Of a stretch of DNA of 64,000 nt, positions 4,305-57,972 are shown piece after piece (position 1 is the stretch's first letter; every line of letters begins with the position of its first letter). The position numbers and the translations under genes are program-made. Source of the DNA: Gilliamella sp. ESL0443 (lineage in GTDB: Bacteria; Pseudomonadota; Gammaproteobacteria; Enterobacterales; Orbaceae); contig NZ_CP048263.1 of assembly GCF_019469165.1 (NCBI RefSeq), positions 1,054,001 to 1,118,000 of the forward strand. The letters are read 5' to 3'. The notes beneath the pieces are model-generated. The model was not told the origin of the DNA. It saw nothing but the letters and a program-made list of their open reading frames with translations, and searched no databases.

Positions 4305-4343
4305 CTTTCCCCTTAAGGATAAATAATTGCTAGTGATAAATAG

Positions 4344-40981: not shown

Positions 40982-41010
40982 AATTAAACCTATTTATCCT
41001 GTAGTTTAAG

Positions 41011-41475: not shown

Positions 41476-41486
41476 AAGCTCACCTT

Positions 41487-41499
41487 GTGACGCTGTAAC
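41487..41499. other. matS-like sequence just upstream of matP (one mismatch)
   Basis: GTGACGCTGTAAC agrees with GTGACRNYGTCAC except A for C at position 11. It ends 11 bp before the matP start codon, in the mRNA leader, where bound MatP could affect its own expression. Confidence 0.4.
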
Positions 41500-41624
41500 T
41501 AAATATGTTAGTTGTAGCATAATCTTGACACACAATAAAGAAAATTATTGCATTTGACAAATTTTTTATAAATCTGCTATCGTTCGCCTATCATTTTGAA
41601 CTTCTACTTAAGGAATTACAAATA

Positions 41625-43307: not shown

Positions 43308-43324
43308 TAATCGTTAAAAAATTT

Positions 43325-43356
43325 ATTACCCCGCCTATTAGTCGGGGTAATTTTTC
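43325..43356. terminator. Bidirectional rho-independent terminator
   Basis: ATTACCCCG (43325-43333) pairs with CGGGGTAAT (43343-43351), 9-nt loop, followed by TTTTC. On the minus strand the tail is AATTTTTT. It serves the convergent amidohydrolase gene and PTS operon. Confidence 0.9.
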
Positions 43357-43361
43357 AATGA

Positions 43362-44768
43362 TTAATCAGCATCAACAATAACATCGCCTTCCACTGCTGG
43401 TTTTCGAGAAAAATGTAAAATCGCAGCAATAATAAATGCTCCGATAAACATATCAATGACATACCATAATGCACCTTTGGTTACACCACCTAACGCAACT
43501 AAACCACCAAATGCAACTAATGAATCAATACCATTAATCATGCCTAGCATTCCCGCAACTGCTGTACCAACAACGATCGCAATAATAACGCGTTTTGGAT
43601 CTTTAGCCGCAAATGGAATCGCCCCTTCTGTAATACCAGCTAGGGATAAAAAGAACGCAGTAATACCAAACTCTTTTTCTTCCTTAGTATATTTAGAGCG
43701 AGACACAATTAAAGAAGAAATAGCCAATCCTAAAGGAGGAATTGCACAGCACATACGAAATACACCATTAGGACCGTAAACACCTTCTGCCATAGCTGCT
43801 AATGTAAAGGCTGTAGCTGCTTTACTACATGGTCCGCCCATATCTAGCGCTGCAAGAACACCAATTCCTATACCTAAAAATGCCGCGTTAACTTCAGACA
43901 TGCCTTTTAAAGTTTCGACCATCGCTTTTACAAACCAATCTAGCGGATATGACAAGCCATAAATATAAATAGGAGCCATAACTAATAAGGTCACAGTTGG
44001 AATAATCATAACCGGCATAACCGAGGCAATAACTGGATGGACTTTAACTGTTTTAAACCATTTTACAAAATAACCAATTAAAACACCGAAAATCATAGCA
44101 CCAATAAAGCCTGTACTTACATGATTAGCACCAATTGGATTATTTACTACATACCCCATAATAAATGCTGGAGCTAAAGCGGCATTTCCACCAATCGAAT
44201 AAGCCATATATGCCGCAAGAACAGGTACCATCATTGCAAAGCCATAAAACGCAACTTGCTGTAAATCGGCAAAGAATTGATTACTTGGTAAAATAGTGTC
44301 ACCAGTTACATGACCTGTCATTAACACTATTGAAAAAAGAATACCTGAAGCAATAATAACTGGTAAAAATTTACTGATACCGGTATTTAATGACCTAAAT
44401 ATTTCTTTTCCAATACTCTCCTTAACTTCTTTTTTTGATGATAGTGCTTCAGCATTGTTAAAAATATTAACCGTGTTTTTAACCGCTTCACCGGTGCTGA
44501 CCTTAATCACATTTTTAAAAGGTTCTAACCTTTCAGCATTATCAATAGAAATATCTGTTGCTAACAAAATCACATCAGCACTTTTTAAATCTTGTTCTGT
44601 TAAAACATTATCAATCCCTGCTGCGCCTTGTGTTTCGACCTTACAATCCCATCCTCGTTTTTTAGCTTCATTTTCAATTTTTTGTTTAGCAATATAAGTA
44701 TGAGCCATACCCGCTGTACAGGCACATATGGCCACAATTTTTTTATTTTTTAGCGATTCTTTACTCAT
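43362..44768 (-). CDS. Fructose-family PTS permease, EIIBC
   Basis: A 468-residue PTS permease. The N-terminal IIB domain (about 1-105) has VAICACTAGMAHTYIA with phospho-accepting Cys17. The IIC domain follows from about residue 130 with around ten membrane segments and conserved DMGGPCSKAATAF, PPLGLAI and ITEGAIPFAAKDP. Family: fructose/2-O-alpha-mannosylglycerate type. It overlaps the IIA gene by 8 bp. No 1-phosphofructokinase or other sugar gene is adjacent, so the substrate is open. Confidence 0.9.
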   Translation of the reverse strand: MSKESLKNKKIVAICACTAGMAHTYIAKQKIENEAKKRGWDCKVETQGAAGIDNVLTEQDLKSADVILLATDISIDNAERLEPFKNVIKVSTGEAVKNTVNIFNNAEALSSKKEVKESIGKEIFRSLNTGISKFLPVIIASGILFSIVLMTGHVTGDTILPSNQFFADLQQVAFYGFAMMVPVLAAYMAYSIGGNAALAPAFIMGYVVNNPIGANHVSTGFIGAMIFGVLIGYFVKWFKTVKVHPVIASVMPVMIIPTVTLLVMAPIYIYGLSYPLDWFVKAMVETLKGMSEVNAAFLGIGIGVLAALDMGGPCSKAATAFTLAAMAEGVYGPNGVFRMCCAIPPLGLAISSLIVSRSKYTKEEKEFGITAFFLSLAGITEGAIPFAAKDPKRVIIAIVVGTAVAGMLGMINGIDSLVAFGGLVALGGVTKGALWYVIDMFIGAFIIAAILHFSRKPAVEGDVIVDAD

Positions 44769-45195
44769 ATAAACCTCGGATTAATTTTGCTACAGTTTGA
44801 ATATCACTATTTAAAAGTTCTTCAATAAAATCATCATCAGCCAAATTAGATGCCAATTTAGCAATTATTGTCAAATGCTCTTTATCCGCATTTTCTGGAG
44901 CGCCAATCATTACCACTAACTTAACTTTATTTTCATTATTCCAAATTACTCCTGGATTATACTTACCGACAACAATAAATGGTGTTTTTACTGCGCTACT
45001 TTTAGCATGAGGCAAAGCAATATCTGTTAGTACATCTGTATCCATTTCTTTTTCATGATTCATAACATCTTGGAAAAATTGTGTGACATTGTTTAAATAC
45101 TCGTTACTGTTTTCTGCCATTAATTTGACCACTAATGATTTATCTTGAGCAAGATTATCAGTTAGTTCGACGGGAATAACCGGAATTAAAGCCAT
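44761..45195 (-). CDS. Fructose-family PTS EIIA component
   Basis: A 144-residue IIA(Fru) domain. Phospho-accepting His63 is in DIALPHAKSSAVKTPFI. GVIWNNENKVKLVVMIGAPE and HLTIIAKLASNLADDDF are typical of the family. It passes phosphate from HPr to the IIB domain of the next gene, with which it overlaps 8 bp. Upstream is a 724-bp gap containing a decayed reading frame on the same strand, perhaps a lost third member of the operon. Confidence 0.9.
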   Translation of the reverse strand: MALIPVIPVELTDNLAQDKSLVVKLMAENSNEYLNNVTQFFQDVMNHEKEMDTDVLTDIALPHAKSSAVKTPFIVVGKYNPGVIWNNENKVKLVVMIGAPENADKEHLTIIAKLASNLADDDFIEELLNSDIQTVAKLIRGLYE

Positions 45196-45520
45196 AAATA
45201 TGTCCTCTTGATAATTATTTAGTATAAAATTTTAGTAAAATAAAGATATACAAAACAAATATATAACGTTCATTTTTTATTTACACTTAATTTTTTGATT
45301 AAATAATTTGATCTTGCTCACAAATATGAAATATTTAAAATTTATTGATGATTAAAGTAATCATTACTTTCAATAGCAAATTATCACACCGAATAAAACT
45401 AGTTGATAAAAATTAACTGCTGAGCAGCAACCAATTATTGCGTTATAAAAGAAGTAAAAATTCTAGATGTTGAGAATAACATTCTAAAAATCTCACATGT
45501 ACTTAACCAATTATCAAATA

Positions 45521-45808
45521 TTAAGATAACATGCTGGCTTTTAAAATTTGTGCTGCATTGAAAAGTAAAGCTTGCATTCGAATTGCATAATCAAAGATTT
45601 ATAAATCAGTGAAATATGGAGTAATATTATTACAATTTAAAGCATCATCAAGGGTTTAAGCAATCATTTGTTTTCAGCAGATAATAATACTTGAACGTTT
45701 AAAAGAATAATCTTCAAGTTTATTAAGCTTTACATTCAACTCTGATGCAGCAAAATTTTTAATAGGGGAAAAGCAATCTAATAAATAACTTGCTTGAAAT
45801 ACTGACAG
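45521..45808 (-). pseudogene. Decayed protein-coding remnant upstream of the PTS operon
   Basis: In one continuous minus-strand frame the translation is protein-like but broken by several in-frame stops: LSVFQASYLLDCFSPIKNFA..., a stop after SSIIIC, a stop after KQMIA, TLDDALNCNNITPYFTDL, stop, then IFDYAIRMQALLFNAAQILK. The helical, hydrophobic-patterned pieces in the same frame suggest a former gene ended by nonsense mutations. I do not recognise the family. The rest of the 45196-45919 gap holds nothing else I can identify. Confidence 0.4.
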
Positions 45809-45919
45809 TTAGAAATTAATACAATAATTTCAAGTTTCTTAAGGAAGGTCTGTTTTTTATTTAGATATAAACTTTAAAATCAACTTATTTTAAAAAACAT
45901 TAACTTGTTGACTGATTGA

Positions 45920-46804
45920 ATGTTTACCTTATACTATGCGCAATTGTTTACCGGCAGTACAAAAATGTTCAACTCCTCAAATCTTCTTAATTGTGTACTC
46001 TTTCCAATCGTTAAGCCTAATTATTCAAAATTAAAATGCCAATTAGAAAATAAAGTGATTGTCATTACCGGCGCTAGCTATGGAATTGGTGAAAGTCTGG
46101 TTAATCTTTTAGCCAATATTCAATGTCATCTTATTTTAGTCGCTAGAACACATGATAAATTAATAAATATACAGCAGTCATTAGCTCACAAAAAAGCTAA
46201 GATTGATATATTTTCGGTTGATTTGCGCGAATCGGAACAATTGGATAATTTAATTACTAATTTACAGCGACACTCTGTTGATATCTTAATCAATAATGCT
46301 GGCAAATCAATTTGTCGGTCAATACTGCAATCATTATCACGTATGCATGATTTTGATAGAACGATGAAGTTAAATTATTATGCACCGGTCAAACTCTGCT
46401 TGGCGTTAATTCCCCAATTACAGCGTAATCAAGGGCAAATTATTAATGTTTCTGCCATAAACGTACTTTTAGCCCCAACGGCTAATTGGGCTGCTTATCA
46501 AGCCTCAAAAACGGCCTTTGACCAATGGTTAAGCTGTGCAAGGCCAGAATTGGAAAATCAGAAAATCAATGTTTCAACAGCTTATTTATCTCTTGTTAAA
46601 ACACGAATGATTGAACCTACTAAGATTTATAAGAGATTTCCTGCCTTACAAGCTGATAAAGCTGCAGCCATAATCTGTCGTTTATTACAAACAAAAAAAC
46701 ATCAATATAAACCATGGTGGACCATTATAGTTCAACTTGCCTCATTATTTTTTAATAATATTTGGGTTAAATTGAACCGTTATTTTTTGAAGAAAACGCT
46801 ATGA
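45920..46804 (+). CDS. Short-chain dehydrogenase/reductase
   Basis: A 294-residue SDR. The NAD(P) motif is VIVITGASYGIGESL, the structural motif is LINNAGKS, and the catalytic residues are Ser in IINVSAINV and Tyr/Lys in AAYQASKTAFDQW. A hydrophobic C-terminal stretch (WWTIIVQLASLFFNNIW) suggests membrane association, as in SDRs acting on lipids. The start could also be the ATG at 45965; neither has a good ribosome-binding site. It overlaps the acyl-CoA ligase gene by 4 bp (ATGA), so the two are coupled. Confidence 0.85.
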   Translation: MFTLYYAQLFTGSTKMFNSSNLLNCVLFPIVKPNYSKLKCQLENKVIVITGASYGIGESLVNLLANIQCHLILVARTHDKLINIQQSLAHKKAKIDIFSVDLRESEQLDNLITNLQRHSVDILINNAGKSICRSILQSLSRMHDFDRTMKLNYYAPVKLCLALIPQLQRNQGQIINVSAINVLLAPTANWAAYQASKTAFDQWLSCARPELENQKINVSTAYLSLVKTRMIEPTKIYKRFPALQADKAAAIICRLLQTKKHQYKPWWTIIVQLASLFFNNIWVKLNRYFLKKTL

Positions 46805-48330
46805 TAAAACTTATTAAAGCGCTATATAAAAAGAAATTATTAACTTTACTAGGCATTTGGCACTTATTAAATAGCGTTCATATTGTTGGTATCAATTTAA
46901 TGGCGTTGCTTTATGTTCGTCAAAAGCTTTCTCCTAACCAAATTGCTATCGATGAGAATGGCACTGGCACTGATTATCGCACTCTTTTTAATCAATCTCA
47001 GCACCTTGCCAAACAATTAGCGATTAATTTTAAAATAAAGCGTCATCAAAAAGTCGCTATTATAGCGCACAACCACCTACTCTTAGTTCACACTTTATTT
47101 GCAATGACAAGATTAGGCGTTGATGTTTATCTTATCAATACTGAACTGTCGACAAATCAACTTAAGTCCATTCACGAAAATGTCGGTTTTGACTGGATAA
47201 TTCATGATCCAGAAATAGAGTGTTTATCAAATGTAAAAAGCTTACCCATTTATCATGAAAGCCTTATGTCAATTCACTCTCTATTAGCTTCAACGTCAAC
47301 AATTGATGTAAAAATTAAAACGACCCACTTCTCAAAAATTACAGTTTTAACGAGTGGTACAACAGGACGTTTTAAATTAGCAGAACGCAACAGTAAGGCA
47401 CAAAATTTTATTAGTCCATTTTGTCAACTACTGGTGAAACTAAATCTTTTCCGTTATCAAAAAATCTATATTGCAACGCCTATTTATCATGGGTTTGGTA
47501 TGGCAAGTTTATGTATAGCTGTGTTATTAGGTGCGACAATGTTTTTAACAAAAAAATTTGATAGTCAAAAAGCATGCAGGTTAATTGCTAGTAACCAAAT
47601 AGAGGTGGTCACACTTGTTCCTTTAATGTTAAATAGGATGCTGAAATGCTCTAAACATCAACTCACTAGTTTAAAATGTATTATTACCGGAGGCGCGCCA
47701 ATTACAGCAATATTAGTTGATCAAGTCATTGCTACACTTGGAAAGATATTATTCAATTTGTATGGTACATCAGAAGCAGGCGTTTGCATGATTGCCTCGC
47801 CTGATGCTCTCTCTATCAAGCCAGAAACCATTGGTAAACCGCTGAGAGGATTATCAACAAAATTACAGAAGCAAAACAATGAATCACAAAAACACCATGA
47901 GCTGTTTATTAAATGTGCTTGGTCAACTGTAGGCAACCATTGGGTTTCAACAGGAGATTTAGTCTATCAAGATGCTGACGGTTATTACTTTTTAGCAGGT
48001 CGCGTTGATGATATGATTGTTTCAGGTGGTGAAAATGTTTATCCATATGAACTTGAACACTGCTTATCAACTCATCCGGAAATTAATGATGTAACAGTGA
48101 TAAGTGTGCCGGATGAAGAATTCGGGCAAAGATTGGTCGTCTTTATTGTTTTAAATCCTAATACCGAACAATCCGAAACTAAAATACAGGACTGGCTTAA
48201 ATCAAAAATAGCCCGTTATCAGATGCCCAAAAAAATCATTTTTATAGAAGAACTACCTATGACAAGTATTGGAAAAATAAACCGTAAAAAATTACAAAAG
48301 CTATTTTTTAATCATTTAAGTAATGCATAA
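46801..48330 (+). CDS. AMP-binding acyl-CoA synthetase-like protein
   Basis: A 509-residue ANL-superfamily enzyme. The P-loop reads TVLTSGTTGRFKLAERN, with Phe in place of the usual Pro. YGTSEAGVCM, STGDLVYQDADGYYFLAGR with DDMIVSGGENVYPYELE, and the C-terminal catalytic lysine in MTSIGKINRKKL are all present. It should activate a carboxylic acid as an acyl-adenylate and probably pass it to CoA. Coupled to the SDR gene by a 4-bp overlap. Together they may activate and reduce or modify a fatty or aryl acid; no carrier protein or thioesterase is adjacent. Confidence 0.87.
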   Translation: MIKLIKALYKKKLLTLLGIWHLLNSVHIVGINLMALLYVRQKLSPNQIAIDENGTGTDYRTLFNQSQHLAKQLAINFKIKRHQKVAIIAHNHLLLVHTLFAMTRLGVDVYLINTELSTNQLKSIHENVGFDWIIHDPEIECLSNVKSLPIYHESLMSIHSLLASTSTIDVKIKTTHFSKITVLTSGTTGRFKLAERNSKAQNFISPFCQLLVKLNLFRYQKIYIATPIYHGFGMASLCIAVLLGATMFLTKKFDSQKACRLIASNQIEVVTLVPLMLNRMLKCSKHQLTSLKCIITGGAPITAILVDQVIATLGKILFNLYGTSEAGVCMIASPDALSIKPETIGKPLRGLSTKLQKQNNESQKHHELFIKCAWSTVGNHWVSTGDLVYQDADGYYFLAGRVDDMIVSGGENVYPYELEHCLSTHPEINDVTVISVPDEEFGQRLVVFIVLNPNTEQSETKIQDWLKSKIARYQMPKKIIFIEELPMTSIGKINRKKLQKLFFNHLSNA

Positions 48331-48509
48331 CATTTAGTTAGCAATAAATGAACTGTTGTCCATTATTATATTCTAATAAAAATTTTTCTTAGAAAGGTAT
48401 TATGAATTTGTAGGCGGCGCTATTTAACCTCTACTTTGAGTTACTCTTCTTGAAAAATAAGCCTGAAAAGTTGACTGGTTTATTTCTAGTTTTCAGTATT
48501 TATTTATGG

Positions 48510-48953
48510 TTAACGTCCTAAAAAAATATCTTTACTGGATCTAGAACTCTCATCTTTAATTTGTTTCTTCTTTTCTATTAAATAGTTATTTGCTTTGATA
48601 TATATATCTTTATCGCATTCAATGTTTAAGATTAATTTATTATTACTTTTATTTATGACGAGAAAATGATTATCCTTATAATCAAAAATAATATTTTCTA
48701 CCGATGTAGCGCCTTTATTAAAATTAGATAAATTATAATAATATCTGAAAGTTACATATTGTTTTGAGATATGAATATAACCATACTCTTTTTCATCAAC
48801 TTTAGCAAAAATTTTTAATGTTAAAGAATCCTCATCTTCAATTTTATCATATTTATAGGATTTTATATAAAACTTAGGGCTAGTAAATGAGCACGTAAAT
48901 AACAAAGATATTATTAAAAAAGTTATAACTGAAATTACCTTAAAGATTTTCAT
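48510..48953 (-). CDS. Small secreted/membrane-anchored protein, candidate immunity protein
   Basis: A 147-residue protein I do not recognise. It has an N-terminal hydrophobic segment (ISVITFLIISLLFTCSF) that could be a signal peptide or anchor, then a Lys/Tyr/Asn-rich domain predicted to be beta-rich. It starts 17 bp after a stop codon ending the decayed small gene at 48971 and follows an Rhs toxin remnant on the same strand, the position where polymorphic-toxin immunity genes usually lie. AGCAGG precedes the ATG. Its role is inferred from context only. Confidence 0.55.
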   Translation of the reverse strand: MKIFKVISVITFLIISLLFTCSFTSPKFYIKSYKYDKIEDEDSLTLKIFAKVDEKEYGYIHISKQYVTFRYYYNLSNFNKGATSVENIIFDYKDNHFLVINKSNNKLILNIECDKDIYIKANNYLIEKKKQIKDESSRSSKDIFLGR

Positions 48954-48970
48954 ATCATTATACCTGCTGC

Positions 48971-49165
48971 TTAAGATGCACTATACATAGAACTTGCACA
49001 TTGTCTTTTGAGCAAATTATATCCTTTTGTTGTATTTACCACATCATAATTATCAACATACATTTTTAAAATTAGACATTTGCATATCATCTACAACAAA
49101 ACTTGTTCCTTTGAGACTAACGAACGAGAAAAACAAAACTTGAATTAAAAGAAAAATTTTTCCAT
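48971..49165 (-). pseudogene. Frameshifted small secreted-protein gene
   Basis: From the ATG at 49165 the frame stops after six codons (MEKFFF), but a one-base shift continues as FLLIQVLFFSFVSLKGTSFV, a signal-peptide-like run, then VDDMQMSNFKNVC. A further shift gives MYVDNYDVVNTTKGYNLLK to a TAA at 48971. The pieces look like one ~65-residue secreted protein broken by two frameshifts. It lies between the Rhs toxin stub and the intact 48510 gene, so it may be a dead immunity gene. Confidence 0.45.
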
Positions 49166-49170
49166 TATGC

Positions 49171-49536
49171 CTATCCCTCTATTTTTAAATTTAAATCTTC
49201 TGGTGCTATGAAGATAGTTTCTTTGAAACCAACGCTTTTAGATGCTCCAACCAGAACTTTCTTTATTATCTTTTTCAACTCACCAATACCCATCCTAATT
49301 AATATATCCATAGCTTTTCTAGATATTAAAAGACCGTCCCCGAAGGGATTAACGAGAGTATTATAATCATGCGTATAAGCATGAACTTTGGTTATCTTCC
49401 TTTTAGTTTTATGGGATCTTGGCTTATATTGGTTCCGGTATTACTGTCGTAATATCGGAACCGATTAGATAAGCAGAAGCGTTGAAACTTTAAAAGGATT
49501 ATGCATTACCATTCTAACACGAGCTGCTTTACTCAT
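49171..49536 (-). pseudogene. Decayed Rhs protein end with toxin stub
   Basis: Three minus-strand frames carry successive pieces of an Rhs core C-terminus: MHNPFKV (49510 region), then LSNRFRYYDSNTGTNISQDP with IKLKG, then after a frameshift KVHAYTHDYNTLVNPFGDGL. These match the Rhs pattern NPF..., NRFRYYDPxTGRFISQDPIGL, and YxYTHDPNTWVDPFGL that ends the conserved core. After it, ISRKAMDILIRMGIGELKK and about 30 more residues form the start of a variable toxin domain, ending at a TAG (49171). The upstream core is absent. The remaining gap to 49604 shares only its last ~15 bp with the Sel1 gene flanks. Confidence 0.7.
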
Positions 49537-49604
49537 TCCGTCAGTTTAAAAATCAGCACTGGCGAGATATCAACACCATATATCTCCTTATATAGAAATA
49601 ATGT

Positions 49605-50096
49605 TTATTTCATTCCTTTATTAAGGATATAGCAACTTTCTTTAAATTTTAGCTCACAAGCTTGTTCAAAATACTTTTTAGCTAACTCGCTATTTTTTTC
49701 AATACCATCACCTTTATAATACATAACGCCTAAATCATGCATTGCTTCAGTGTTACCATTATCTACAGATTTTTTATACCAAAATAGTGCTTTCTCTTTA
49801 TCGACTTCGACTCCCTCACCTTCTTCATACATGCGTGATAAACCATATTGCGCAATAGAAACCCCTTGTTCCGCTGCCTGAGTAAGCCAATATAGCGCTT
49901 TTTCAGTATTTTCTTCGACGCCGTCGCCGTTGTAATACATAAATGCTAAATTAAACTGAGCATCTTTATCTCCCTGCTCAGCCTCAGTGTTACAAGCAAT
50001 AAAAACTTTATCAAAAGCTTTTTGTTCAAAATAGTTAGCGCAATTATTAGCGTAATCCGTCGTCGATAATAATGCTGTTAATACAACATATACCAA
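49605..50096 (-). CDS. Sel1-repeat protein, short copy with altered N-terminus
   Basis: A 163-residue Sel1-like repeat protein with about three repeats (GDKDAQFNLAFMYYNGDGVE, then KALYWLTQAAEQGVSIAQYG) and the family C-terminal block ending ACELKFKESCYILNKGMK. Its start MVYVVLTALLSTTDYA lacks the MKK of the other copies: the 5' end has been fused into the truncated preceding gene, so its start codon lies inside that gene (19-bp overlap). The shortened n-region may weaken secretion. Probably translated only by coupling to the upstream gene. Confidence 0.8.
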   Translation of the reverse strand: MVYVVLTALLSTTDYANNCANYFEQKAFDKVFIACNTEAEQGDKDAQFNLAFMYYNGDGVEENTEKALYWLTQAAEQGVSIAQYGLSRMYEEGEGVEVDKEKALFWYKKSVDNGNTEAMHDLGVMYYKGDGIEKNSELAKKYFEQACELKFKESCYILNKGMK

Positions 50097-50689
50097 TATA
50101 GCGCTTTTTCTTTATTTCCTTCATGATCAAACATCCAGGCTAAACCACTGTGCTGCGCATAAACAAACCCTTGTTTAGTAGCTTTAGTGTACCAATAGAG
50201 CACTTTTTTTCTATTTTTATCGAAATTGAACGACCGCCCTAATTCATATTGAGCAACAATAAATCCTTGCTCTGCTGCTTTAGTGAGCCATTTTTCACGT
50301 TCAAACCTATTGGATAAATCATATTGCGCTTGAACAGATCCGGCTTCCGCTGCTTGAGTGAGCCAATAGAGTGCTTTTTCTTTGTTTTCCTCGACTTCCT
50401 CACCTTCTTCATACATGCGTGATAAACCATATTGCGCAATAGAAACCCCTTGTTCCGCTGCCTGAGTAAGCCAATATAGTGCTTTTTCAGTATTTTCTTC
50501 GACACCGTAGCCGTTGTAATACATAAATGCTAAATTAAACTGAGCATCTTTATCTCCCTGCTCAGCCTCAGTGTTACAAGCAATAAAAGCTTTATCAAAA
50601 CCTTTTTGTTCGAAATAGGTAGCGCAATGATTAGCGTAAGCCGTCGTCGATAATAATGCTGTTAATACAACAAATAGTACTTTTTTCAT
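50078..50689 (-). CDS. Sel1-repeat protein, C-terminally truncated copy
   Basis: A 203-residue secreted Sel1-repeat protein. The signal peptide MKKVLFVVLTALLSTTAYA is followed by NHCATYFEQKGFDKAFIACN and about five helix-turn-helix repeats. It lacks the ~60-residue C-terminal block found in all its sisters and ends in YWYMLY where it runs into the 5' end of the next copy. A deletion between two repeat genes at about 50087 explains both. Sel1 repeats are protein-interaction scaffolds. Whether this product is stable is unknown. Confidence 0.8.
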   Translation of the reverse strand: MKKVLFVVLTALLSTTAYANHCATYFEQKGFDKAFIACNTEAEQGDKDAQFNLAFMYYNGYGVEENTEKALYWLTQAAEQGVSIAQYGLSRMYEEGEEVEENKEKALYWLTQAAEAGSVQAQYDLSNRFEREKWLTKAAEQGFIVAQYELGRSFNFDKNRKKVLYWYTKATKQGFVYAQHSGLAWMFDHEGNKEKALYWYMLY

Positions 50690-50945
50690 TAGTTTTCCTT
50701 AAATTCCTAAAAATAATAATAATTTTTTTATTTTGCCTGCTGGCAAGAAAAGAACAAAAATACGCTTACTATCTATTACTTGTTAACAATGTACTTTTAA
50801 ATCGCTTATCGGTATATGCAGTTGATAAAATGACTAACACGCCAACCCAATATCTTGAGCCGTATTAAAATGTCACTGTTAAGCTAATTTATATCAAAAA
50901 AGTGATTGTGTTAACAGAAGAAATAACATTTTGAGTCTATATAAA

Positions 50946-50983
50946 AAAAGAACTGCCTTAATATATGAGGCAGTTCTTTTAAC
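50946..50983 (-). terminator. Terminator of the 51017 Sel1 gene
   Basis: AAAAGAACTGCC (50946-50957) pairs with GGCAGTTCTTTT (50969-50980), with an A/T-rich flank that gives a U tract on the minus strand. A near-identical element follows the next copy at 52459. Confidence 0.85.
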
Positions 50984-51016
50984 ATGTTTCTAATTTGCAT
51001 GACTTATGAATAATGT

Positions 51017-52216
51017 TTATTTGATTCCTTTGTGAAGGATATCGCAACTTTCTTTAAATTTTAACTCACAAGCTTGTTCAAAATACTTTTTAGCTAACTC
51101 GCTATTTTTTTCAATACCATCACCTTTATAATACATAACGCCCAAATCATGCATTGCTTCAGTGTTACCATTATCTACAGATTTTTTATACCAAAATAGT
51201 GCTTTTTCTTTATCGACTTCGATCTCGTATCCTTTGTCATACATATGTGCTAAACGATATTGTGTTTGACTAAGCTCTTTTTTCATTGCGTTACTGAGCC
51301 AATATACCGTTTTATCTTTATTAACTTCGAGACCGTCTCCTTTGTCATACATTTCTGCTAAATCATATTGCGCTTGAGCAATTCCATATTCTGGTACATC
51401 GCTTTTTCTAGGTAACCTCTTACGTAGTTCTGCTATAACATCGTCACTTTCATTATTCAAAACTGCTAAATAATACTGCGCCTCAACATATCCTTTTTTT
51501 ACTGCTTTCGTGTACCAATATACTGCTTTCTCTTTATTGACCTCAACACTGTCTCCTTTATCATATCTCTTTGCTAACTCGAATTGCGCCCAACCATCCC
51601 CTCGTTCCGCAGCTTTTGTATACCAATACACCGCTTTTTCTTGATTGACTTCGACACCGAGCCCATAGTTATAAATGTTTGCTAATCCAATTTGTGCAGA
51701 AATAAGCCCCTGTTGCTCAGCTTTAGTATACCAATATAGCGATTTTTCTTTATTACCATGTTGCCCTAAATCATATTGCGCAACAACAAATCCTTGCTCT
51801 GCTGCTTTAGTGAGCCATTTTTCACGTTCAAACCTTTCGGATAAATCATATTGTGCTTGAACAGATCCGGCTTCCGCTGCTTGAGTGAGCCAATATAGTG
51901 CTTTTTCTCTGTTTTCCTCGACTCCCTCACCTTCTTCATACATGCGTGATAAACCATATTGCGCAACAGAAACCCCTTGTTCCGCTGCCTGAGTAAGCCA
52001 ATTTAGTGCTTTTTCTGTATTTTTTTCGACGCCGTCGCCGTTGTAATACATAAATGCTAAATTAAACTGAGCATCTTTATCTCCCTGCTCAGCCTCAGTG
52101 TTACAAGCAATTAACGCTTGAGCAAAGTCTTTTTGTTCGAAATAGGTGGCGCAATTATTAGCGTAAGCCGTCGTCGATAATAATGCTGTTAATACAACAA
52201 ATTGTACTTTCTTCAT
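51017..52216 (-). CDS. Secreted Sel1-repeat protein
   Basis: A 399-residue protein. Signal peptide MKKVQFVVLTALLSTTAYA is followed by NNCATYFEQKDFAQALIACN, then roughly nine Sel1-like repeats of the form A..GLA.IYNYGLGVEVNQEKAVYWYTKAAERG, and the shared C-terminal block KALFWYKKSVDNGNTEAMHD to KESCDILHKGIK. The two central Cys of the C-terminal block and the Cys pair at the mature N-terminus (NNCATY, ACNTEA) could form disulfides in the periplasm. It is a tandem paralog of its neighbours with nearly copied flanks. The partner is unknown; SLR proteins include adaptor and T6SS immunity proteins elsewhere. Confidence 0.9.
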   Translation of the reverse strand: MKKVQFVVLTALLSTTAYANNCATYFEQKDFAQALIACNTEAEQGDKDAQFNLAFMYYNGDGVEKNTEKALNWLTQAAEQGVSVAQYGLSRMYEEGEGVEENREKALYWLTQAAEAGSVQAQYDLSERFEREKWLTKAAEQGFVVAQYDLGQHGNKEKSLYWYTKAEQQGLISAQIGLANIYNYGLGVEVNQEKAVYWYTKAAERGDGWAQFELAKRYDKGDSVEVNKEKAVYWYTKAVKKGYVEAQYYLAVLNNESDDVIAELRKRLPRKSDVPEYGIAQAQYDLAEMYDKGDGLEVNKDKTVYWLSNAMKKELSQTQYRLAHMYDKGYEIEVDKEKALFWYKKSVDNGNTEAMHDLGVMYYKGDGIEKNSELAKKYFEQACELKFKESCDILHKGIK

Positions 52217-52529
52217 TAGTTTTCCTTAATTTCCTTAAATATAATAATTTTTTTATTTTGTCTGCTGGCAAAAATACGCTTACTATCTATTACTCGTTAA
52301 CAATGTACTTTTAAATGACTTATGGGATATGGAGTTGATAAAATGGTTAACACGCCAACCAAATATCTTTAGCCGTTTTAAAAAGTCACTGTTAAGCTAA
52401 TTTATATCAAAAAAGTGATTGTGTTAACAGAAGAAATAACATTTTGAGTCTATATAAAAAAAGAACTGCCTTAATATGTGAGGCAGTTCTTTTAACATGT
52501 TTCTAATTTGCCTGACTTATGAATAATGT
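52217..52529 (-). repeat. Duplicated spacer between Sel1-repeat genes
   Basis: The spacers 50690-51016, 52217-52529 and 54159-54469, and part of 55964-56100, are near-copies. Each carries, on the minus strand, a TTGCCAGCAGACAAAAT-like block, AAATTATTATATTTAAGG, a GGAAAACTA ribosome-binding region before the ATG, and a distal terminator hairpin. Each gene thus has its own control unit, and duplication units span gene plus spacer. No other gene is seen in these gaps. Confidence 0.8.
52459..52496 (-). terminator. Terminator of the 52530 Sel1 gene
   Basis: AAAAGAACTGCC (52459-52470) with GGCAGTTCTTTT (52482-52493), the same stem as at 50946 with one loop change. Confidence 0.85.
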
Positions 52530-54158
52530 TTATTTGATTCCTTTGTGAAGGATATCGCAACTTTCTTTAAATTTTAGCTCACAAGCTTGTTCAAAATACT
52601 TTTTAGCTAACTCGCTATTTTTTTCAATACCATCACCTTTATAATACATAACGCCCAAATCATGCATTGCTTCAGTGTTACCATTATCTACAGATTTTTT
52701 ATACCAAAATAGTGCTTTTTCTTTATCGGATTCGATACCGTCACCTTGGTCATACATACGTGCTAACTCATATTGCGCAGCAGTATGCTCTTCTTGCGCA
52801 TCACCATCCCATAGTTCAGCGACTTTTGTGTACCAATATAATGCTTTCCTTTTATCAACTTTGACCCCATCACCTTCAGCATATATACTTGCCAAAGAAT
52901 ATTGCGCCCCAACAAACCCTTCTTCCTCTCCTTGAGCTTGAGAAAACCAATATGACGCTTTTTCCTGATTGACTTCGACACCATCTCCTTGGTCATACAT
53001 ATATGCTAACTCTAATTGCGCAGAAATATCCCCTTCTTCAGCTGCTTTTGTGTACCAATATAATGCTTTACTTTTATTAGGTTTGACCCTATTGCCTTCG
53101 GCATACATATGTGCCAAATCAGATTGCGCTTCAACAACCCCATATTCTTGTCTTTCTCCTTGAGCTTTAGCTCGAGAGTACCAATATCGTGCTTTTTCTT
53201 TATTGACTTCGATACCCTCACCTTGGTCATACCTATATGCTAACTCTAATTGCGCAGAAATATACTTTCCTTCCGCTAATTTGGTATACCAATATAGCGC
53301 TTTTTCTTTATTGATTTCGCCATCTATACCTTGGTCATACATAAGAGCTAACTCATATTCTCCATCAGCAAGTCCTTCTTCCACTTCTTCAACTTTAGAG
53401 TACCAATATGCTGCTTTTTCTTTATTGATTTCGACACCCTTACCTTGGTCATACATATATGCTAACTCAAATTGCGCAAATTCATACCCCAGTTCCGCTG
53501 CTTGAGTGTACAAATAGAGGGCTTTTTCTTTATCGACTTCGACACCATCTCCTATTTCATACATACGTGCTAAATGATATTGCGCCTCACTAAGCCCATG
53601 TTCCATTGCTTTAGTAAACCAATAGAGGGCTTTTTCTTTATTTTTTTCGACACCGTCACCTCTATAATAAAGAAGCGCTAAATCATTTTCCGCCTTATCA
53701 AACCCATGTTCTGCTGCTTGAGTGAGCCAATATAGCGATTTTTCTTTATTGACTTCAATACCGTTATCGTCAACATACATAAGTGCTAACTGATATTGCG
53801 CCTCAAGAAATCCTTGTTCCGCTGCTTTTGTGAACCAATAGAGTGCTTTATCTTTATCAATACCGACACCATACCCATTGTTATACGTCTGTGCTAAATC
53901 ATATTGCGCCTTAACATGGCCTTGTTCCCCTGCTTCTGCGTACCAATAGAGTGCTTTTTCTTTATTGTCGGCACCTATACGTTCGTCATATATAAGTGCT
54001 AAATTATACTGAGCTTCCCTATCTCCTTGATCAGCCTCAGTGTTACAAGCAATAAACGCTTGATCAAAATTGTTTTGTTCATAATAGGTCGCGCAATTAT
54101 TAGCGTAAGCCGTCGTCGATAATAATGTTGTTAATACAACAAATTGTACTTTTTTCAT
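52530..54158 (-). CDS. Secreted Sel1-repeat protein, longest copy
   Basis: A 542-residue secreted protein: signal peptide MKKVQFVVLTTLLSTTAYA, NNCATYYEQNNFDQAFIACN, then about twelve Sel1-like repeats such as AQYDLAQTYNNGYGVGIDKD, several with insertions (for example ARYWYSRAKAQGERQEYGVV). It ends with the shared C-terminal block identical to that of the 51017 copy (KALFWYKKSVDNGNTEAMHD to ILHKGIK). Identical ends with diverged middles point to gene conversion of the termini or recombination through them. Own promoter region and terminator. Function unknown. Confidence 0.9.
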   Translation of the reverse strand: MKKVQFVVLTTLLSTTAYANNCATYYEQNNFDQAFIACNTEADQGDREAQYNLALIYDERIGADNKEKALYWYAEAGEQGHVKAQYDLAQTYNNGYGVGIDKDKALYWFTKAAEQGFLEAQYQLALMYVDDNGIEVNKEKSLYWLTQAAEHGFDKAENDLALLYYRGDGVEKNKEKALYWFTKAMEHGLSEAQYHLARMYEIGDGVEVDKEKALYLYTQAAELGYEFAQFELAYMYDQGKGVEINKEKAAYWYSKVEEVEEGLADGEYELALMYDQGIDGEINKEKALYWYTKLAEGKYISAQLELAYRYDQGEGIEVNKEKARYWYSRAKAQGERQEYGVVEAQSDLAHMYAEGNRVKPNKSKALYWYTKAAEEGDISAQLELAYMYDQGDGVEVNQEKASYWFSQAQGEEEGFVGAQYSLASIYAEGDGVKVDKRKALYWYTKVAELWDGDAQEEHTAAQYELARMYDQGDGIESDKEKALFWYKKSVDNGNTEAMHDLGVMYYKGDGIEKNSELAKKYFEQACELKFKESCDILHKGIK

Positions 54159-54412
54159 TAGTTTTCCTTAATTTCCTTAAATATAATAATTTTTTTATTT
54201 TGTCTGCTGGCAAAAATAGAACAAAATACGCTTACTATCTATTACTCGTTAACAATGTACTTTTAAATCGTTTATCGGTATATGGAGTTAATAAAATGTT
54301 ATCATATCAACCAAATATCTTGGGCCTAATTAAAAAGTCACTGTTAAATCAATCTATATCAAAAAAGATTGGGATAACAGAATCAATGACATTTTGAGTC
54401 TGTATAAAAAAT

Positions 54413-54431
54413 TGTCTTAATATATAAGACA
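54413..54431 (-). terminator. Terminator of the 54470 Sel1 gene
   Basis: TGTCTTA (54413-54419) pairs with TAAGACA (54425-54431). Read on the minus strand it is followed by ATTTTTTATAC. It is a divergent version of the terminators at 50946 and 52459. Confidence 0.75.
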
Positions 54432-54469
54432 TTTTTAGCATATATATTTTCAATATGAATTAATCGTGT

Positions 54470-55963
54470 TTATTTAAGGGAATTATAATCATCACATCCT
54501 TTATCAAAACCAAGCGAACAAGCTTGCTTAAAATACCTTTTTGCTAACGCTATATCTTTTTTTACTCCGTCTCCGTGGTGATACATAAGTCCTAAATTAT
54601 ATTGCGCTTCACTATACCCTTGTTCCGCTGCTTTTGTGTACCAATATAATGCTTTCTTTTTATCAACTTTGACCCCATCACCTTCAGCATAAATACTTGC
54701 CAAATAATATTGATCTACCATAAACTCATCTTCCTCTTCTTGAGCTAGAGATAGAACTTGAGCTTGAGAATACCAATATAGTACTTTTTCTTTATTAACT
54801 TCGACACCAACTCCTTGGTCATACAAATAGGCTAACTCTAATTGCGCAGAGATATCCCCTTGTTCCGCCGCTTTGGTGTACCAATATAGTGCTTTTTCTT
54901 TATTGATTTGGACCCGATCTCCTTGGTCATACATACGTGCTAAATTATATTGCTCATCACCATTTCCTTGTTTGGTAGCTTTAGTATACCAATCTAGCGA
55001 TTTTTCTTTATTGACTTCAACACCATCTCCTTGGTCATAGATATATGCTAACTCTAACTGCGCAAAAATATGACCTTGTTCCGCTGCTTGGGTGTACCAA
55101 CTCCGTACTTTTTCTTTATTGTTTTCGACACCATCTCCGACTTCATACATACGTGCTAAATTGTATTGCGCGTCACCATCCCCTTGTTTGGCGGCTTTGG
55201 TATACCAATATAGCGCTTTTTCTTTATTGACCTCGACACCATCTCCGACTTCATACAAACGTGCTAAATTAAATTGCGCATAACTAGCGCCTTGCTCAGC
55301 GGCTTTAGTATACCAATATAATGTTTTTTCGATATTTCTTTCGAGACCTTCCCCTTTGTAATACATAAGGCCTAAATTATATTGCGCGTCACCATACCCT
55401 TGTTTGGCGGCTTTAGTAAACCAATATAGGGCTTTTTCTTTATTGACTTCGACACCGAATCCTCTGTTATACATAGCCCCTAAATTAAATTGTGCATTAC
55501 TAAGACCTTGTTCAGCGGCTTTAGTATACCAATATAATTCTTTTTCAATATTTTGTACGACGCCTTCCCCATTACCATACATAACCCCTAAATTATATTG
55601 CGCTTCACTATGCCCTTGTTCAGCGGCTTTAGTATACCAATATAGTGCTTTCTCTTTATTGACTTCGATATCCCATCCTATGTAATAATTATATGCTAAA
55701 TCAAATTGCGCTTGAGCAAATCCAGCTTCCGCTGCTTTTGTTTCCCAATATAGTCCTTTTTCAATATTTTCTTCAACGCCATCGCCGTTGTAAAACATTA
55801 GTGCTAAATTATACTGAGCTTCCCTATCTCCCTGCTTAGCCTCAGTATTACAAGCAATAAAAGCTTTATCAAAATCTTTTTGTTCATAATAGGTAGCACA
55901 ATGATTAGCGTAAACCGTCGTCGAGAATAATGCAGTTAATGCAACAAGGGGGATGTTTTTCAT
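54470..55963 (-). CDS. Secreted Sel1-repeat protein, most divergent copy
   Basis: A 497-residue protein from the ATG at 55963 (MKNIPLVALTALFSTTVYA), which has AGGGAA just upstream; the longer frame to 56017 adds no signal-like sequence. After NHCATYYEQKDFDKAFIACN come about eleven well ordered Sel1 repeats (AQYNLGVMYGNGEGVVQNIE and similar). The C-terminal block differs from its sisters: GDGVKKDIALAKRYFKQACS, then LGFDKGCDDYNSLK. Its regular repeats and own end suggest it is nearest to the ancestral gene of the array. It is the promoter-proximal, first copy on this strand. Confidence 0.9.
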   Translation of the reverse strand: MKNIPLVALTALFSTTVYANHCATYYEQKDFDKAFIACNTEAKQGDREAQYNLALMFYNGDGVEENIEKGLYWETKAAEAGFAQAQFDLAYNYYIGWDIEVNKEKALYWYTKAAEQGHSEAQYNLGVMYGNGEGVVQNIEKELYWYTKAAEQGLSNAQFNLGAMYNRGFGVEVNKEKALYWFTKAAKQGYGDAQYNLGLMYYKGEGLERNIEKTLYWYTKAAEQGASYAQFNLARLYEVGDGVEVNKEKALYWYTKAAKQGDGDAQYNLARMYEVGDGVENNKEKVRSWYTQAAEQGHIFAQLELAYIYDQGDGVEVNKEKSLDWYTKATKQGNGDEQYNLARMYDQGDRVQINKEKALYWYTKAAEQGDISAQLELAYLYDQGVGVEVNKEKVLYWYSQAQVLSLAQEEEDEFMVDQYYLASIYAEGDGVKVDKKKALYWYTKAAEQGYSEAQYNLGLMYHHGDGVKKDIALAKRYFKQACSLGFDKGCDDYNSLK

Positions 55964-56445
55964 AAGTTCCCTAAATTTCCTTAAATATAATAATTTTTTT
56001 ATTTTGCCTACTGACAAGAAAAGAATAGGCTTACTCTCTATTACTTTTTAACAATGTACTTTATGCGTATGTGGAGTTGAAAAAATTGTTAACACGCCAA
56101 TTATTGGATCACATAAAAATGTCACTATTATTAGAAAAGTATTTAACCATAATATTCCTATAAATATATTTTCTCATTACTTTATATCAAATCCTTAATA
56201 TTTCCCTTTCTTCAGAAATTAAAAATGCGATTTATTTTTATAGGCAAATAACCTTGGTTTAATCTATTTTTATTCTTATTCATAATAGAGAGCTTAACCT
56301 AAATATAAATCACTTTCTTTGAGTCTAAAAAATCTATTTTTATTAAGAATTGTTCAGAAATAATTCATATTAAATGGTTAAATCCAGAATTTACTAAATT
56401 AAATGTCAATATAATAAAAATTAGCTTGCATAATTATGATAATGT

Positions 56446-56512
56446 GGCAGAATTCCCTGCCGCTTCAAGCGGGTAAAAGGCAAAACTATACTTAGTAGTT
56501 TTTTATTGTTTT
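56446..56512 (+). promoter_or_regulatory. Structured leader with attenuator-like hairpins before puuP-like gene
   Basis: GGCAG-N6-CTGCC (56446-56461) overlaps a second possible stem CCGC-TTCAA-GCGG (56460-56472), so the two are mutually exclusive. Then AAAACTA (56482-56488) pairs with TAGTTTT (56496-56502), followed by a T-rich run to 56512, like a weak intrinsic terminator. The GAGGAG ribosome-binding site lies at 56521. No known riboswitch class was recognised. The wider gap 55964-56538 shows nothing else beyond part of the Sel1 spacer. Confidence 0.5.
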
Positions 56513-56538
56513 TTGGGACAGAGGAGCAAAAATAAATC

Positions 56539-57921
56539 ATGTCCGCAATAAAAATGAAACGAGTTTTAACCACACCTGCATTAATTGCATTTGGTTTAGC
56601 TTATATGGTTCCTTTAGGGATCTTTACCACTTATGGGGAAGTTACCGTTGTCAGTAATGGACACTTACCTATAGCCTACATCATCACCCTTGCCATGATC
56701 TTTTTCACAGCATTGAGTTACTGCCGAATGGCAAATAAACTCCCTATTGCTGGTTCGGCGTATACCTATGTACAACGAACTTTTGGTGGAAAAGTTGGTT
56801 TCTTAGTTGGTTGGGCACAAATTCTTGATTACCTATTTTTACCAATATTAAATTATTTGGTTTTAGGAATATATCTACATGAGCACTTTGAGAATATTCC
56901 AGCCTATGTATTTGTATTAGTATCGATTATGGGTGTCAGTATATTAAATTATCTTGGAATCAAGTTAATCAATTGGGCCAATATCACTTTAAATTTATTT
57001 CAAGCGTTATTTATCGTATTGTTTATTATTATAACTTTAATAAATGTTGATTTAACACCTGAAGCGATGCTCAAACCAATATCTGTTACACCAGATGACT
57101 TTAGTGGTTTATTTTCTGGAGCCGCCATATTATGCCTTGCATTTTTAGGTTTTGATGCAATAGCGACACTGGCTGAAGAATCAAATGAAGCGAAAAAAAC
57201 CTTACCAAGAGCTATTATTGGCACCGTACTTATTGCTGGTTGTATATTCCTAGTTGTTTCCTATTGTGCGCATTTAGCGTATCCGCAATGGACTGATTTT
57301 GTTGATAATAGAGATACAGCGAGTTTGGATGTAATGCATAGAGTTGATAGCATAAGTCATTTAAGCGATATTTTCGGCAAGTATGGAGATAATTTTATTT
57401 ATAATTTCTTCCAAACAGCATATCTAACAGGTGTATTTGCCTCAACCATGACAGCCCAAACTAGCGTTTCTCGAATTTTTTATGCTATGGGACGTGAAGG
57501 TGTATTACCTAAAAGAATCTTCTATAGAATTCATCCACGTTTTAGAACACCTTACTTATCAATAATTTTTGTTTCTATTTTTTCATTATTCTCTTTGGTT
57601 CTTGATTTAACCTTAGTGATATCGATGATAAGTTTTGGTGCATTAGTCGCTTTTACCTTTGTCAACCTATGCGTTATCAAAAGCTACTTAGGTGGTGAAA
57701 CCAAGAAAACAGTGTTGATGCTATTAAAATATGGACTAATGCCTGCAATTGGTTTACTACTTTCGTTGTGGCTATGGACTAGCCTTGAATCGACAGCAAT
57801 GATGGTTGGATTGATTTGGTTGGCTTTTGGATTCTGTTATTTACTTTATTTAACTCGATTTTTTACAACAACATTACCATCAATTGATCATTCGGAATTG
57901 GATTCAATTATCAAAGATTAG
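56539..57921 (+). CDS. APC-family putrescine/amino acid importer (PuuP-like)
   Basis: A 460-residue APC transporter with about twelve membrane helices. LTTPALIAFGLAYMVPLGIF, LPIAGSAYTYVQRTFGGKVG, ILDYLFLPILNYLV and FLGFDAIATLAEESNEAKKT match the PuuP/PlaP group of putrescine-proton symporters, though related carriers move other amines. No puuABCDE catabolic genes are adjacent. It is preceded by a structured leader and followed by a strong terminator, so it is a single-gene unit. Confidence 0.83.
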   Translation: MSAIKMKRVLTTPALIAFGLAYMVPLGIFTTYGEVTVVSNGHLPIAYIITLAMIFFTALSYCRMANKLPIAGSAYTYVQRTFGGKVGFLVGWAQILDYLFLPILNYLVLGIYLHEHFENIPAYVFVLVSIMGVSILNYLGIKLINWANITLNLFQALFIVLFIIITLINVDLTPEAMLKPISVTPDDFSGLFSGAAILCLAFLGFDAIATLAEESNEAKKTLPRAIIGTVLIAGCIFLVVSYCAHLAYPQWTDFVDNRDTASLDVMHRVDSISHLSDIFGKYGDNFIYNFFQTAYLTGVFASTMTAQTSVSRIFYAMGREGVLPKRIFYRIHPRFRTPYLSIIFVSIFSLFSLVLDLTLVISMISFGALVAFTFVNLCVIKSYLGGETKKTVLMLLKYGLMPAIGLLLSLWLWTSLESTAMMVGLIWLAFGFCYLLYLTRFFTTTLPSIDHSELDSIIKD

Positions 57922-57972
57922 ATAATTCTATTAGGTCTACTTAAAAGTATTTAGTTCATGCCCTTTAAAAAT

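What the first reader, a model, noticed from the sequence alone, without database searches (positions are those of the whole stretch)
49605..55963. Array of five secreted Sel1-repeat genes with conserved ends and variable middles
All five share the signal peptide and first ~60 residues. The last ~60 residues are near-identical in three copies, while repeat number (about 3 to 12) and repeat sequence differ. Spacers, ribosome sites and terminators are copied too. This is what recombination through flanking identity would produce and suggests a family under diversifying selection, for example immunity, adhesion or partner-binding proteins. It sits directly against a toxin remnant.
Basis: partly seen in the sequence, partly recalled or inferred. 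Interest (0 to 1): 0.8.

Follow-up and report, generated by a model that had tools for sequence, protein, structure and literature searches.

The report
Horizontally acquired secreted Sel1-repeat gene array
A bacterium of a bee-gut genus carries a row of related genes for secreted, spring-shaped binding proteins whose ends stay fixed while the number and sequence of the middle repeats change; the row sits in a block of DNA shared with another species, and it resembles a gene family already described in Haemophilus more than a toxin-immunity locus.

Summary
Five Sel1-repeat ORFs lie at 49605-55963 with shared signal peptides, a shared C-end in three, similar spacers and copied terminators. Only A, B and C are intact; one out-of-frame deletion took the C-end of D and the start of E. 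In 35 of 47 related genes the ends carry a cysteine pair (C-x15-C after the signal peptide, C-x7-C at the C-end) around 1 to 25 repeats, so the conserved ends look like structural caps. The array sits in an 11.2-kb island (45208-56411) that a close relative lacks and a more distant congener has at the same site with 91-95% identity, against 71-80% for the flanks: it moved horizontally. The toxin remnant is real (Rhs core end, linked immunity-like gene) but does not explain the family: this genome has no detectable T6SS, 18 of 25 genome-site cases have no toxin neighbour visible by eye, and presence at the commonest site does not track T6SS. dN/dS is raised (0.2-1.3) but below 1 when pooled, so diversifying selection is not shown. 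The closest precedent is the tandem SlrV/Msf family of Haemophilus influenzae. Best reading: extracytoplasmic binding solenoids, partner unknown; new member of a known kind, unusually mobile.

The parts
54470..55963 (-). SLR gene A, 497 aa, signal peptide, 12 repeats, both cysteine caps; by its caps it groups with two genes of the G025 pepB-ppiA array
52530..54158 (-). SLR gene B, 542 aa, 13 repeats, both caps
51017..52216 (-). SLR gene C, 399 aa, 10 repeats, both caps; 91% aa identical to gene 1 of the G025 island, 82% to gene 5 of the G025 pepB-ppiA array
50078..50689 (-). SLR gene D, 203 aa, truncated: N-cap present, C-cap lost
49605..50096 (-). SLR ORF E, 163 aa, start region lost: begins in mid signal peptide inside the end of D, in another frame; C-cap present
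50078..50096 (-). D/E junction: deletion joining mid-repeat of D to mid-signal-peptide of E, frame not kept, little shared sequence at the joint
54159..54469 (-). spacer A-B with ribosome site before B; weaker terminator-like hairpin within 54390-54440
52217..52529 (-). spacer B-C; terminator hairpin 52462-52490 followed by a U run
50690..51016 (-). spacer C-D, 95% identical to B-C; terminator hairpin 50949-50977 followed by a U run
49171..49505 (-). Rhs remnant: core end (49392-49505) and an orphan C-terminal piece (49171-49440), in different frames
48510..48953 (-). 147-aa protein with an apparent N-terminal signal or membrane segment, no Pfam or NCBIfam family; its relatives lie close to DNA matching the remnant in G024, G018, G022 and G002, so probably the Rhs immunity gene
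45208..56411 (.). 11.2-kb island holding an SDR-like gene (45920-46804 +), an acyl-CoA ligase-like gene (46801-48330 +), the immunity-like gene, the Rhs remnant and the SLR array; 194 bp in its place in G020 (gene names by eye)
44761..45195 (-). left flank: PTS EIIA-like gene (by eye), next to the permease in 14 of 29 congener loci inspected
56539..57921 (+). right flank: amino-acid permease (by eye)

Best explanation
This is a horizontally acquired tandem array of SlrV/Msf-type secreted Sel1-repeat proteins. Shown by sequence: each intact gene is a cassette with its own ribosome site (B and C also with a clear terminator) encoding a signal peptide, an N-cap with a C-x15-C pair, a variable run of 36-aa Sel1 repeats and a C-cap with a C-x7-C pair; cassettes are copied, lost and broken, and whole repeats are gained or lost in frame; the array lies in a block shared with a congener of the G025 type. 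Inferred: the proteins fold in the periplasm or outside the cell as alpha-solenoids closed at both ends by disulfides; the caps are constrained by folding, while the repeats form a binding surface whose length and residues can change by recombination. Inferred and uncertain: the job is binding of other proteins at the cell envelope or host surface, as proposed for SlrV/Msf, Hcp and EsiB, and not neutralisation of the Rhs toxin next door. In this genome the array is partly decaying (D/E).
For: Cap rule: 35 of 47 SLR genes at the pepB-ppiA, island and prophage-type sites have both cysteine pairs, with 1 to 25 repeats between (counted). Of the 12 without, ten are truncated, split or cut at a contig end; two are not (G025_I 17226 and G036_III 15343, each with one N-cap cysteine lost). 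Model of C (mean pLDDT 82, pTM 0.58) is all helical hairpins with the two cysteine pairs in its first and last hairpins; best PDB fold matches are Sel1 proteins, including LceB, EsiB (4bwr) and HcpC. Island: empty site in G020, shared tract with G025; dS 0.04-0.14 in four island genes against 0.93, 1.52, 2.43 and saturated in four flank genes. Origin: by caps A groups with two genes, and B, C and E with two other genes plus the island gene, of G025, apart from G000's own pepB-ppiA genes; spacers agree. Precedent: H. influenzae slrV genes are tandem (0-5 per strain), have signal peptides, variable repeat number and in 54 of 55 a C-end with two cysteines, and sit at four loci (PMC4792463: abstract, passages, section 5 part 1, section 6).
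Against: No ligand, localisation or phenotype is known here; no signal-peptide predictor was run. Disulfides are inferred from spacing. The N-cap cysteine pair is absent from the f9-family genes and from the eamA-MATE genes, so the wider family is not one design. The island and prophage-type arrays sit beside toxin/immunity or phage genes, which fits other roles. Bees have no vertebrate macrophages or IgA (general knowledge), so the Haemophilus and E. coli functions cannot be carried over directly.
Confidence: 0.6

Rival explanations
1. Orphan immunity array: periplasmic SLR proteins neutralise effectors injected by T6SS-bearing neighbours (congeners, other gut bacteria), kept although this genome has no T6SS.
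For: Tandem SLR genes are immunity genes in studied systems: K. pneumoniae Sel1E protects against VgrG4, and five sel1 genes lie downstream of vgrG4, though Sel1D does not protect (PMC7108748 passages); PldB of P. aeruginosa has three immunity genes, PA5088-PA5086 (PMC6099711 passages), and PA5086 is rank 49 among the fold matches. Island arrays lie beside Rhs pieces in G000, G025 and G024; the G036 array has a PAAR-DUF4225 gene downstream. Orphan immunity genes are reported in Gilliamella, and G. apis lacks T6SS (PMC8125069 passages).
Against: No toxin neighbour seen by eye at the pepB-ppiA and eamA-MATE sites. SLR presence at pepB-ppiA does not track T6SS: 7 T6SS+ and 5 T6SS- with SLR, 13 and 5 without, p = 0.46 (30 of 35 genomes decided; six of those 'without' carry SLR arrays elsewhere). 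The nearest VgrG hit to a pepB-ppiA or island array in G001, G012, G024 and G025 is 77 kb away. PA5087 (5jkp) matches only weakly by sequence (E 7e-6).
Confidence: 0.25
2. Ordinary expansion of periplasmic SLR proteins with a general envelope role (chaperone or protease docking, signalling), where copy and repeat number drift because tandem repeats are unstable.
For: A steady site between pepB and a secreted prolyl isomerase in 12 genomes; pooled pN/pS below 1; broken copies at the island site in G000, G025 and G024.
Against: 18 of 30 decided genomes lack SLR genes at that site, so the role is dispensable or filled elsewhere; movement by island and presence in predicted viral contigs suggest selectable cargo; amino-acid change is faster than in flanking genes (28:5 against 8:27, p = 2.5e-7).
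Confidence: 0.2
3. Diversifying selection on repeat surfaces (antigen- or decoy-like variation).
For: One ortholog pair (G001/G012 gene 1) has 28 nonsynonymous and 5 synonymous changes, 24 of the 28 in the middle; positive selection is reported for H. pylori hcpG and hcpC (PMC3608669, abstract and outline).
Against: That ratio is not significantly above 1 (p = 0.82); the other pairs are 0.52, 0.22, 0.30 and 0.22, and one pair is identical; gene conversion between paralogs can also raise the ratio.
Confidence: 0.2
4. The SLR proteins are themselves injected or secreted effectors.
For: A Sel1-domain protein of Klebsiella is proposed as a T6SS effector because it is associated with T6SS and slows E. 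coli when expressed (PMC12469244 passages).
Against: Here the genes have Sec-type signal peptides by eye, and the genome has no T6SS match.
Confidence: 0.05

Closest known systems
SlrV / Msf family of Haemophilus influenzae (PMC4792463)
   Same: Secreted Sel1-repeat proteins in tandem, variable copy number and repeat number, conserved signal peptide and C-end with two cysteines, several chromosomal sites, remnants of lost genes
   Different: Here an added N-cap cysteine pair, many more repeats (up to 25 in capped genes, 29 at the eamA-MATE site), other chromosomal sites, island movement between species, arrays beside prophage tail genes, a bee-gut genus
Hcp proteins of Helicobacter pylori (HcpC, 1ouv)
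   Same: Secreted cysteine-bearing SLR paralogs; a closely spaced cysteine pair as in the C-cap (Hcp spacing recalled)
   Different: In Hcp disulfides link successive repeats (PMC3851747 passages); here A, B and C have cysteines in the caps only
EsiB / c5321 of E. coli (4bwr)
   Same: SLR solenoid of 11 repeats without inter-repeat disulfides and with probable capping helices (PMC3851747 passages); among the best sequence and fold matches
   Different: Not described as a tandem array in the passages seen; cap cysteines not checked
Sel1 immunity proteins of T6SS loci (K. pneumoniae Sel1E; P. aeruginosa PA5086-PA5088)
   Same: Tandem SLR paralogs, SLR fold
   Different: Those lie directly beside their effector gene; here no cognate effector was found and the genome has no T6SS match

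Membership tests
SlrV/Msf-type SLR family | 36-aa Sel1 repeats in variable number | tested here: met
   PF08238 in all five; 3 to 13 repeats
SlrV/Msf-type SLR family | N-terminal signal peptide | tested here: met
   Clear by eye in A-D; no predictor was run; E lacks its start
SlrV/Msf-type SLR family | Conserved C-end with two equidistant cysteines | tested here: met
   C-x7-C in A, B, C and E, not in truncated D; the same spacing in most SLR genes of the f9 family
SlrV/Msf-type SLR family | Tandem genes with copy number that varies between strains | tested here: inconclusive
   Varies between species: 0 to 5 at pepB-ppiA, 3 in G013 and at least 6 in L190 at the prophage-type site; no strain panel of one species
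SlrV/Msf-type SLR family | Invariant tyrosine at motif position 27 | not tested
   Register of the published motif not reconstructed
SlrV/Msf-type SLR family | Location at the prfA locus | tested here: not met
   Other sites here; the paper itself lists three further slrV loci, so not strictly defining
Hcp family | Disulfides linking successive repeats | tested here: not met
   A, B and C have four cysteines, all in the caps
T6SS SLR immunity protein | Gene directly beside its effector | tested here: not met
   Permease, not an effector, stands beyond A; downstream only an Rhs remnant with its own immunity-like gene; no VgrG or VipB match in the genome
T6SS SLR immunity protein | Neutralises a named effector | not testable with these tools
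   Needs a competition or co-expression test

The most novel reading that the evidence does not exclude
These bacteria use double-capped SLR solenoids as a swappable, mobile binding repertoire: cassettes move between chromosomal sites, genomic islands and prophages, and between species, and repeat-number changes retune the binding surface against changing partners (injected effectors, phages or host molecules), so that even a strain without T6SS gains protection in a T6SS-rich gut community.
Probability: 0.12. Interest if true: 0.8.

Novelty: new member of a known kind. Interest (0 to 1): 0.42.

Why it matters
It gives a case of the SlrV-type array outside the pathogens in which it was described, with a larger range of repeat number and with direct evidence of movement between species and of arrays beside prophage tail genes. 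Fixed caps around cysteine-poor middles make a natural series of solenoids from 1 to 25 repeats, useful for testing what repeat number does. It also warns against reading every SLR gene next to an Rhs fragment as an immunity gene.

Tried and rejected
Immunity by neighbourhood: tested by looking for Rhs cores (12 genomes, 8 with a match), VgrG (13 genomes, 10 with a match) and VipB (35 genomes, 24 with a match). The only steady toxin link is the island site. Diversifying selection: tested on six SLR ortholog pairs and flanking genes, three of the pairs pooled; the others were left out of the pool because of strong length difference, saturation or no change at all. Not shown. Phage origin of the window's own array: gene C finds no relative in viral contigs (3 stretches matched a pattern, none confirmed) and only distant ones in 16 phage records (all under 60% identity; the 12 listed are 29-35%); the prophage-type genes do occur in viral contigs. 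Known defence systems: PADLOC hits of A, B and C to PtuA cover about 50 residues of a 545-position model (E down to 1.6e-12), with weaker hits to another ATPase model and one weak hit of the 147-aa protein; I read these as shared repeat sequence or chance, not defence genes. Insertion signature: one search shows one 14-nt A/T-rich direct repeat inside the right border stretch and imperfect inverted repeats in the left one; the two borders were not compared with each other, so an attachment site is neither shown nor excluded. Assembly artefact at D/E: unlikely, because the joint has almost no shared sequence, but reads were not seen. Papers: no paper in the library holds both Gilliamella and Sel1; one holds Sel1 and 'bee gut' (listing only, an Acetobacteraceae study).

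Limits: one genome per species, so no strain panel. Family and Pasteurellaceae assignments are recalled, not looked up. Names of flanking genes (pepB, ppiA, EamA, MATE, permease, EIIA, SDR, ligase, prfA, ubiD) are by eye, without a family search. G032 and G034 were put in the prophage-type group by shared neighbours, not by phage genes. Regions L136-L148 were fetched and their ORFs computed, but only part of them was looked at. The motif count found nothing and the HMM build failed; both were redone.
Full report
What is there. On the minus strand, five ORFs with Sel1 repeats run A to E from 55963 to 49605. A, B and C are intact (497, 542 and 399 aa; 12, 13 and 10 repeats by an HMM from the window's own repeats). 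The first 60 residues are 62-90% identical across the five; the last 60 are 100% identical in B and C and 95% in E. A has its own version of the same C-end. The spacers are 84-95% identical, and two of them carry the same strong terminator hairpin. D ends in mid-repeat without a C-end. E begins in mid signal peptide, inside the end of D, in another frame. This is one deletion whose joint shows almost no shared sequence, so here the change did not go through long flanking identity.

Why the ends are conserved. One search lists the cysteines of 68 SLR rows from this and related genomes. At the pepB-ppiA, island and prophage-type sites there are 47 rows; 35 have a C-x15-C pair just after the signal peptide and a C-x7-C pair at the C-end, with 1 to 25 repeats between them. 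Ten of the other 12 are truncated, split or cut at a contig end; two are not (G025_I 17226 and G036_III 15343, each with one N-cap cysteine missing). The middle repeats of most have no cysteine, though a few do (for instance G013_III 8186 and G025_I 13814). The genes at the eamA-MATE site have no N-cap pair and at most a C-end pair. The AlphaFold model of C (mean pLDDT 82, pTM 0.58) is a run of helical hairpins with the cysteine pairs in the first and last hairpin. The best PDB matches are other Sel1 proteins, including LceB, EsiB and HcpC, and by sequence 6ok3 and EsiB. Query-normalised TM-scores are low (0.53 at best among the 50 listed), as may be expected for solenoids of different length and curvature.

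Where it came from. In G020, a close relative, the stretches matching window 40000-45207 and 56412-57947 (87.5 and 87.7% identity) lie 194 bp apart. The 11.2 kb between them in the window, with an SDR-like gene, an acyl-CoA ligase-like gene, a 147-aa gene, an Rhs remnant and the SLR array, is absent there. In 14 of 29 congener loci inspected the permease and the EIIA-like gene are neighbours; several others carry other genes there. G025 holds the block at the same site: 94.6% over 45666-49904 and 91.5% over 50154-52357, while flank pieces match at 71-80%. dS is 0.04-0.14 in four island genes and 0.93, 1.52, 2.43 and saturated in four flank genes. By their caps, A groups with two genes of the G025 pepB-ppiA array, and B, C and E with two others of that array and with the G025 island gene; the window genome's own two pepB-ppiA genes lie outside (quick tree, SH-aLRT 80-96 on these branches). 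The simplest account is that a pepB-ppiA array of a G025-like lineage seeded the island site, and that the island then moved into this genome.

How widespread and variable. ppiA was found in 33 of 35 genus genomes. I could inspect the site in 32 (30 loci plus L050 and L053; G027 was not inspected). SLR genes are there in 12, absent in 18 (in 13 of these the neighbour carries my pepB motif, in 5 it is another or cut ORF), undecided at contig ends in 2. Where whole, copy number is 1 to 5. Six congeners without SLR at pepB-ppiA have SLR genes at an eamA-MATE site instead (G003, G004, G006, G010, G021, G028; in G010 the contig ends before eamA). Arrays also lie beside prophage genes: in G013 next to tail genes and in G036 behind a tail-spike and a holin gene. 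Predicted viral contigs hold the G013 array (L189, two genes before the contig ends) and, in L190 and its identical twin L191, seven SLR ORFs, which make six genes if the split pair is one; in those 9 kb I saw no phage gene. Between G001 and G012 the second gene differs by exactly three repeats (108 aa). Relatives occur in 43 of 44 genomes of the family, but that search also counts other SLR genes.

Selection. C against its G025 ortholog gives dN/dS 0.52. G001/G012 gene 1 gives 1.29 and gene 2 gives 0.22, with pepB and ppiA at 0.08 each; G013/G014 gives 0.30, G024/G007 0.22, and G015/G033 are identical. Pooled over the first three pairs, pN/pS is 0.39 in caps and 0.58 in middles, both significantly below 1 (p = 0.008 and 0.017). 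More nonsynonymous change per site in middles than caps has p = 0.08; gene 2 of G001/G012 alone goes the other way. The excess of G001/G012 gene 1 over its neighbours is clear (28:5 against 8:27, p = 2.5e-7), but it is not above 1 (p = 0.82). So evolution is fast and loosely constrained; positive selection is possible in single genes and not shown.

The toxin next door. 49392-49505 reads as an Rhs core end (below cut-off), and the DNA there matches Rhs-core regions of this genome at 1040-1049 kb and of other genomes. The 147-aa gene has relatives in 6 of 35 genomes, this one included. In G024, G018, G022 and G002 they lie within about 0.6 kb of DNA that matches the remnant, and in the last three Rhs-core hits lie within 1 kb. 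It is probably the immunity gene of that Rhs tip. The SLR genes are a separate matter: G012, G013 and G025 have SLR arrays and no Rhs-core match at E <= 1e-5 (G025 does have this remnant by DNA), the window genome has no VipB and no VgrG match, and SLR at pepB-ppiA is not linked to T6SS (7/5 against 13/5, p = 0.46; 30 of 35 genomes; counted by hand). Of the 25 genome-site cases seen (12 pepB-ppiA, 6 eamA-MATE, 3 island, 4 prophage-type), the first 18 show no toxin neighbour by eye. Against my reading: at the island site SLR genes and Rhs DNA lie together in all three genomes that have it, and in G024 the broken SLR gene stands about 2.5 kb from a long Rhs region; in G036 a PAAR-DUF4225 gene lies downstream of the array.

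What is known. PMC4792463 (abstract, passages, section 5 part 1, section 6) describes in H. influenzae tandem secreted SLR genes, 0-5 per strain, with variable repeat number, a conserved C-end with two cysteines, four loci and remnants, and a role in macrophage survival. The window's array has the same design with an added N-cap. PMC7108748 (passages) shows that an SLR gene in a tandem row can be a T6SS immunity gene, PMC12469244 (passages) proposes a Sel1-domain protein as a T6SS effector, and PMC8125069 (passages) reports orphan immunity genes in Gilliamella and no T6SS in G. apis. I therefore keep immunity as the main rival.

Verdict. The finding is real, with corrected gene content and a structural reason for the conserved ends. 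The new parts are the island and its transfer between species, the double-cap rule with its exceptions, and the four kinds of site. The function is inferred only: extracytoplasmic binding, partner unknown.

Noticed in passing
L045, L175, L189, L190: SLR arrays beside prophage tail genes (G013) or a tail-spike and holin gene (G036), and in predicted viral contigs, one with seven SLR ORFs: possible phage-borne cargo of unknown function (PHROG 8741 matches one such protein).
   Followed up: partly
window 45920-48330: An SDR-like gene and an acyl-CoA ligase-like gene travel in the same island as the SLR array, 94.6% and 96.7% aa identical to those of G025.
   Followed up: partly
window 48510-48953: 147-aa protein without known family, close to Rhs-remnant-like DNA in four other genomes: candidate new Rhs immunity family.
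   Followed up: partly
L144 (G000:C1:1040357-1049076): Six Rhs-core matches in a genome without VipB or VgrG match: Rhs pieces kept without a T6SS.
   Followed up: no
L169, L171, L172, L181, L182, L183: A second steady home of SLR genes, between an EamA-type and a MATE-type gene, in congeners that lack SLR genes at pepB-ppiA; proteins up to 1090 aa.
   Followed up: partly
L175:17812-19712 and 4186-4849: PAAR-DUF4225 gene followed by two small membrane-protein genes; near-copies of the two small genes also stand upstream of the phage/SLR stretch, like a duplicated effector-immunity unit.
   Followed up: no
L038:6476-7549 and L043:6841-7902: A single secreted SLR gene (353-357 aa) without cysteines at its C-end, beside a ubiD-like gene, in this genome and in G025.
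   Followed up: no
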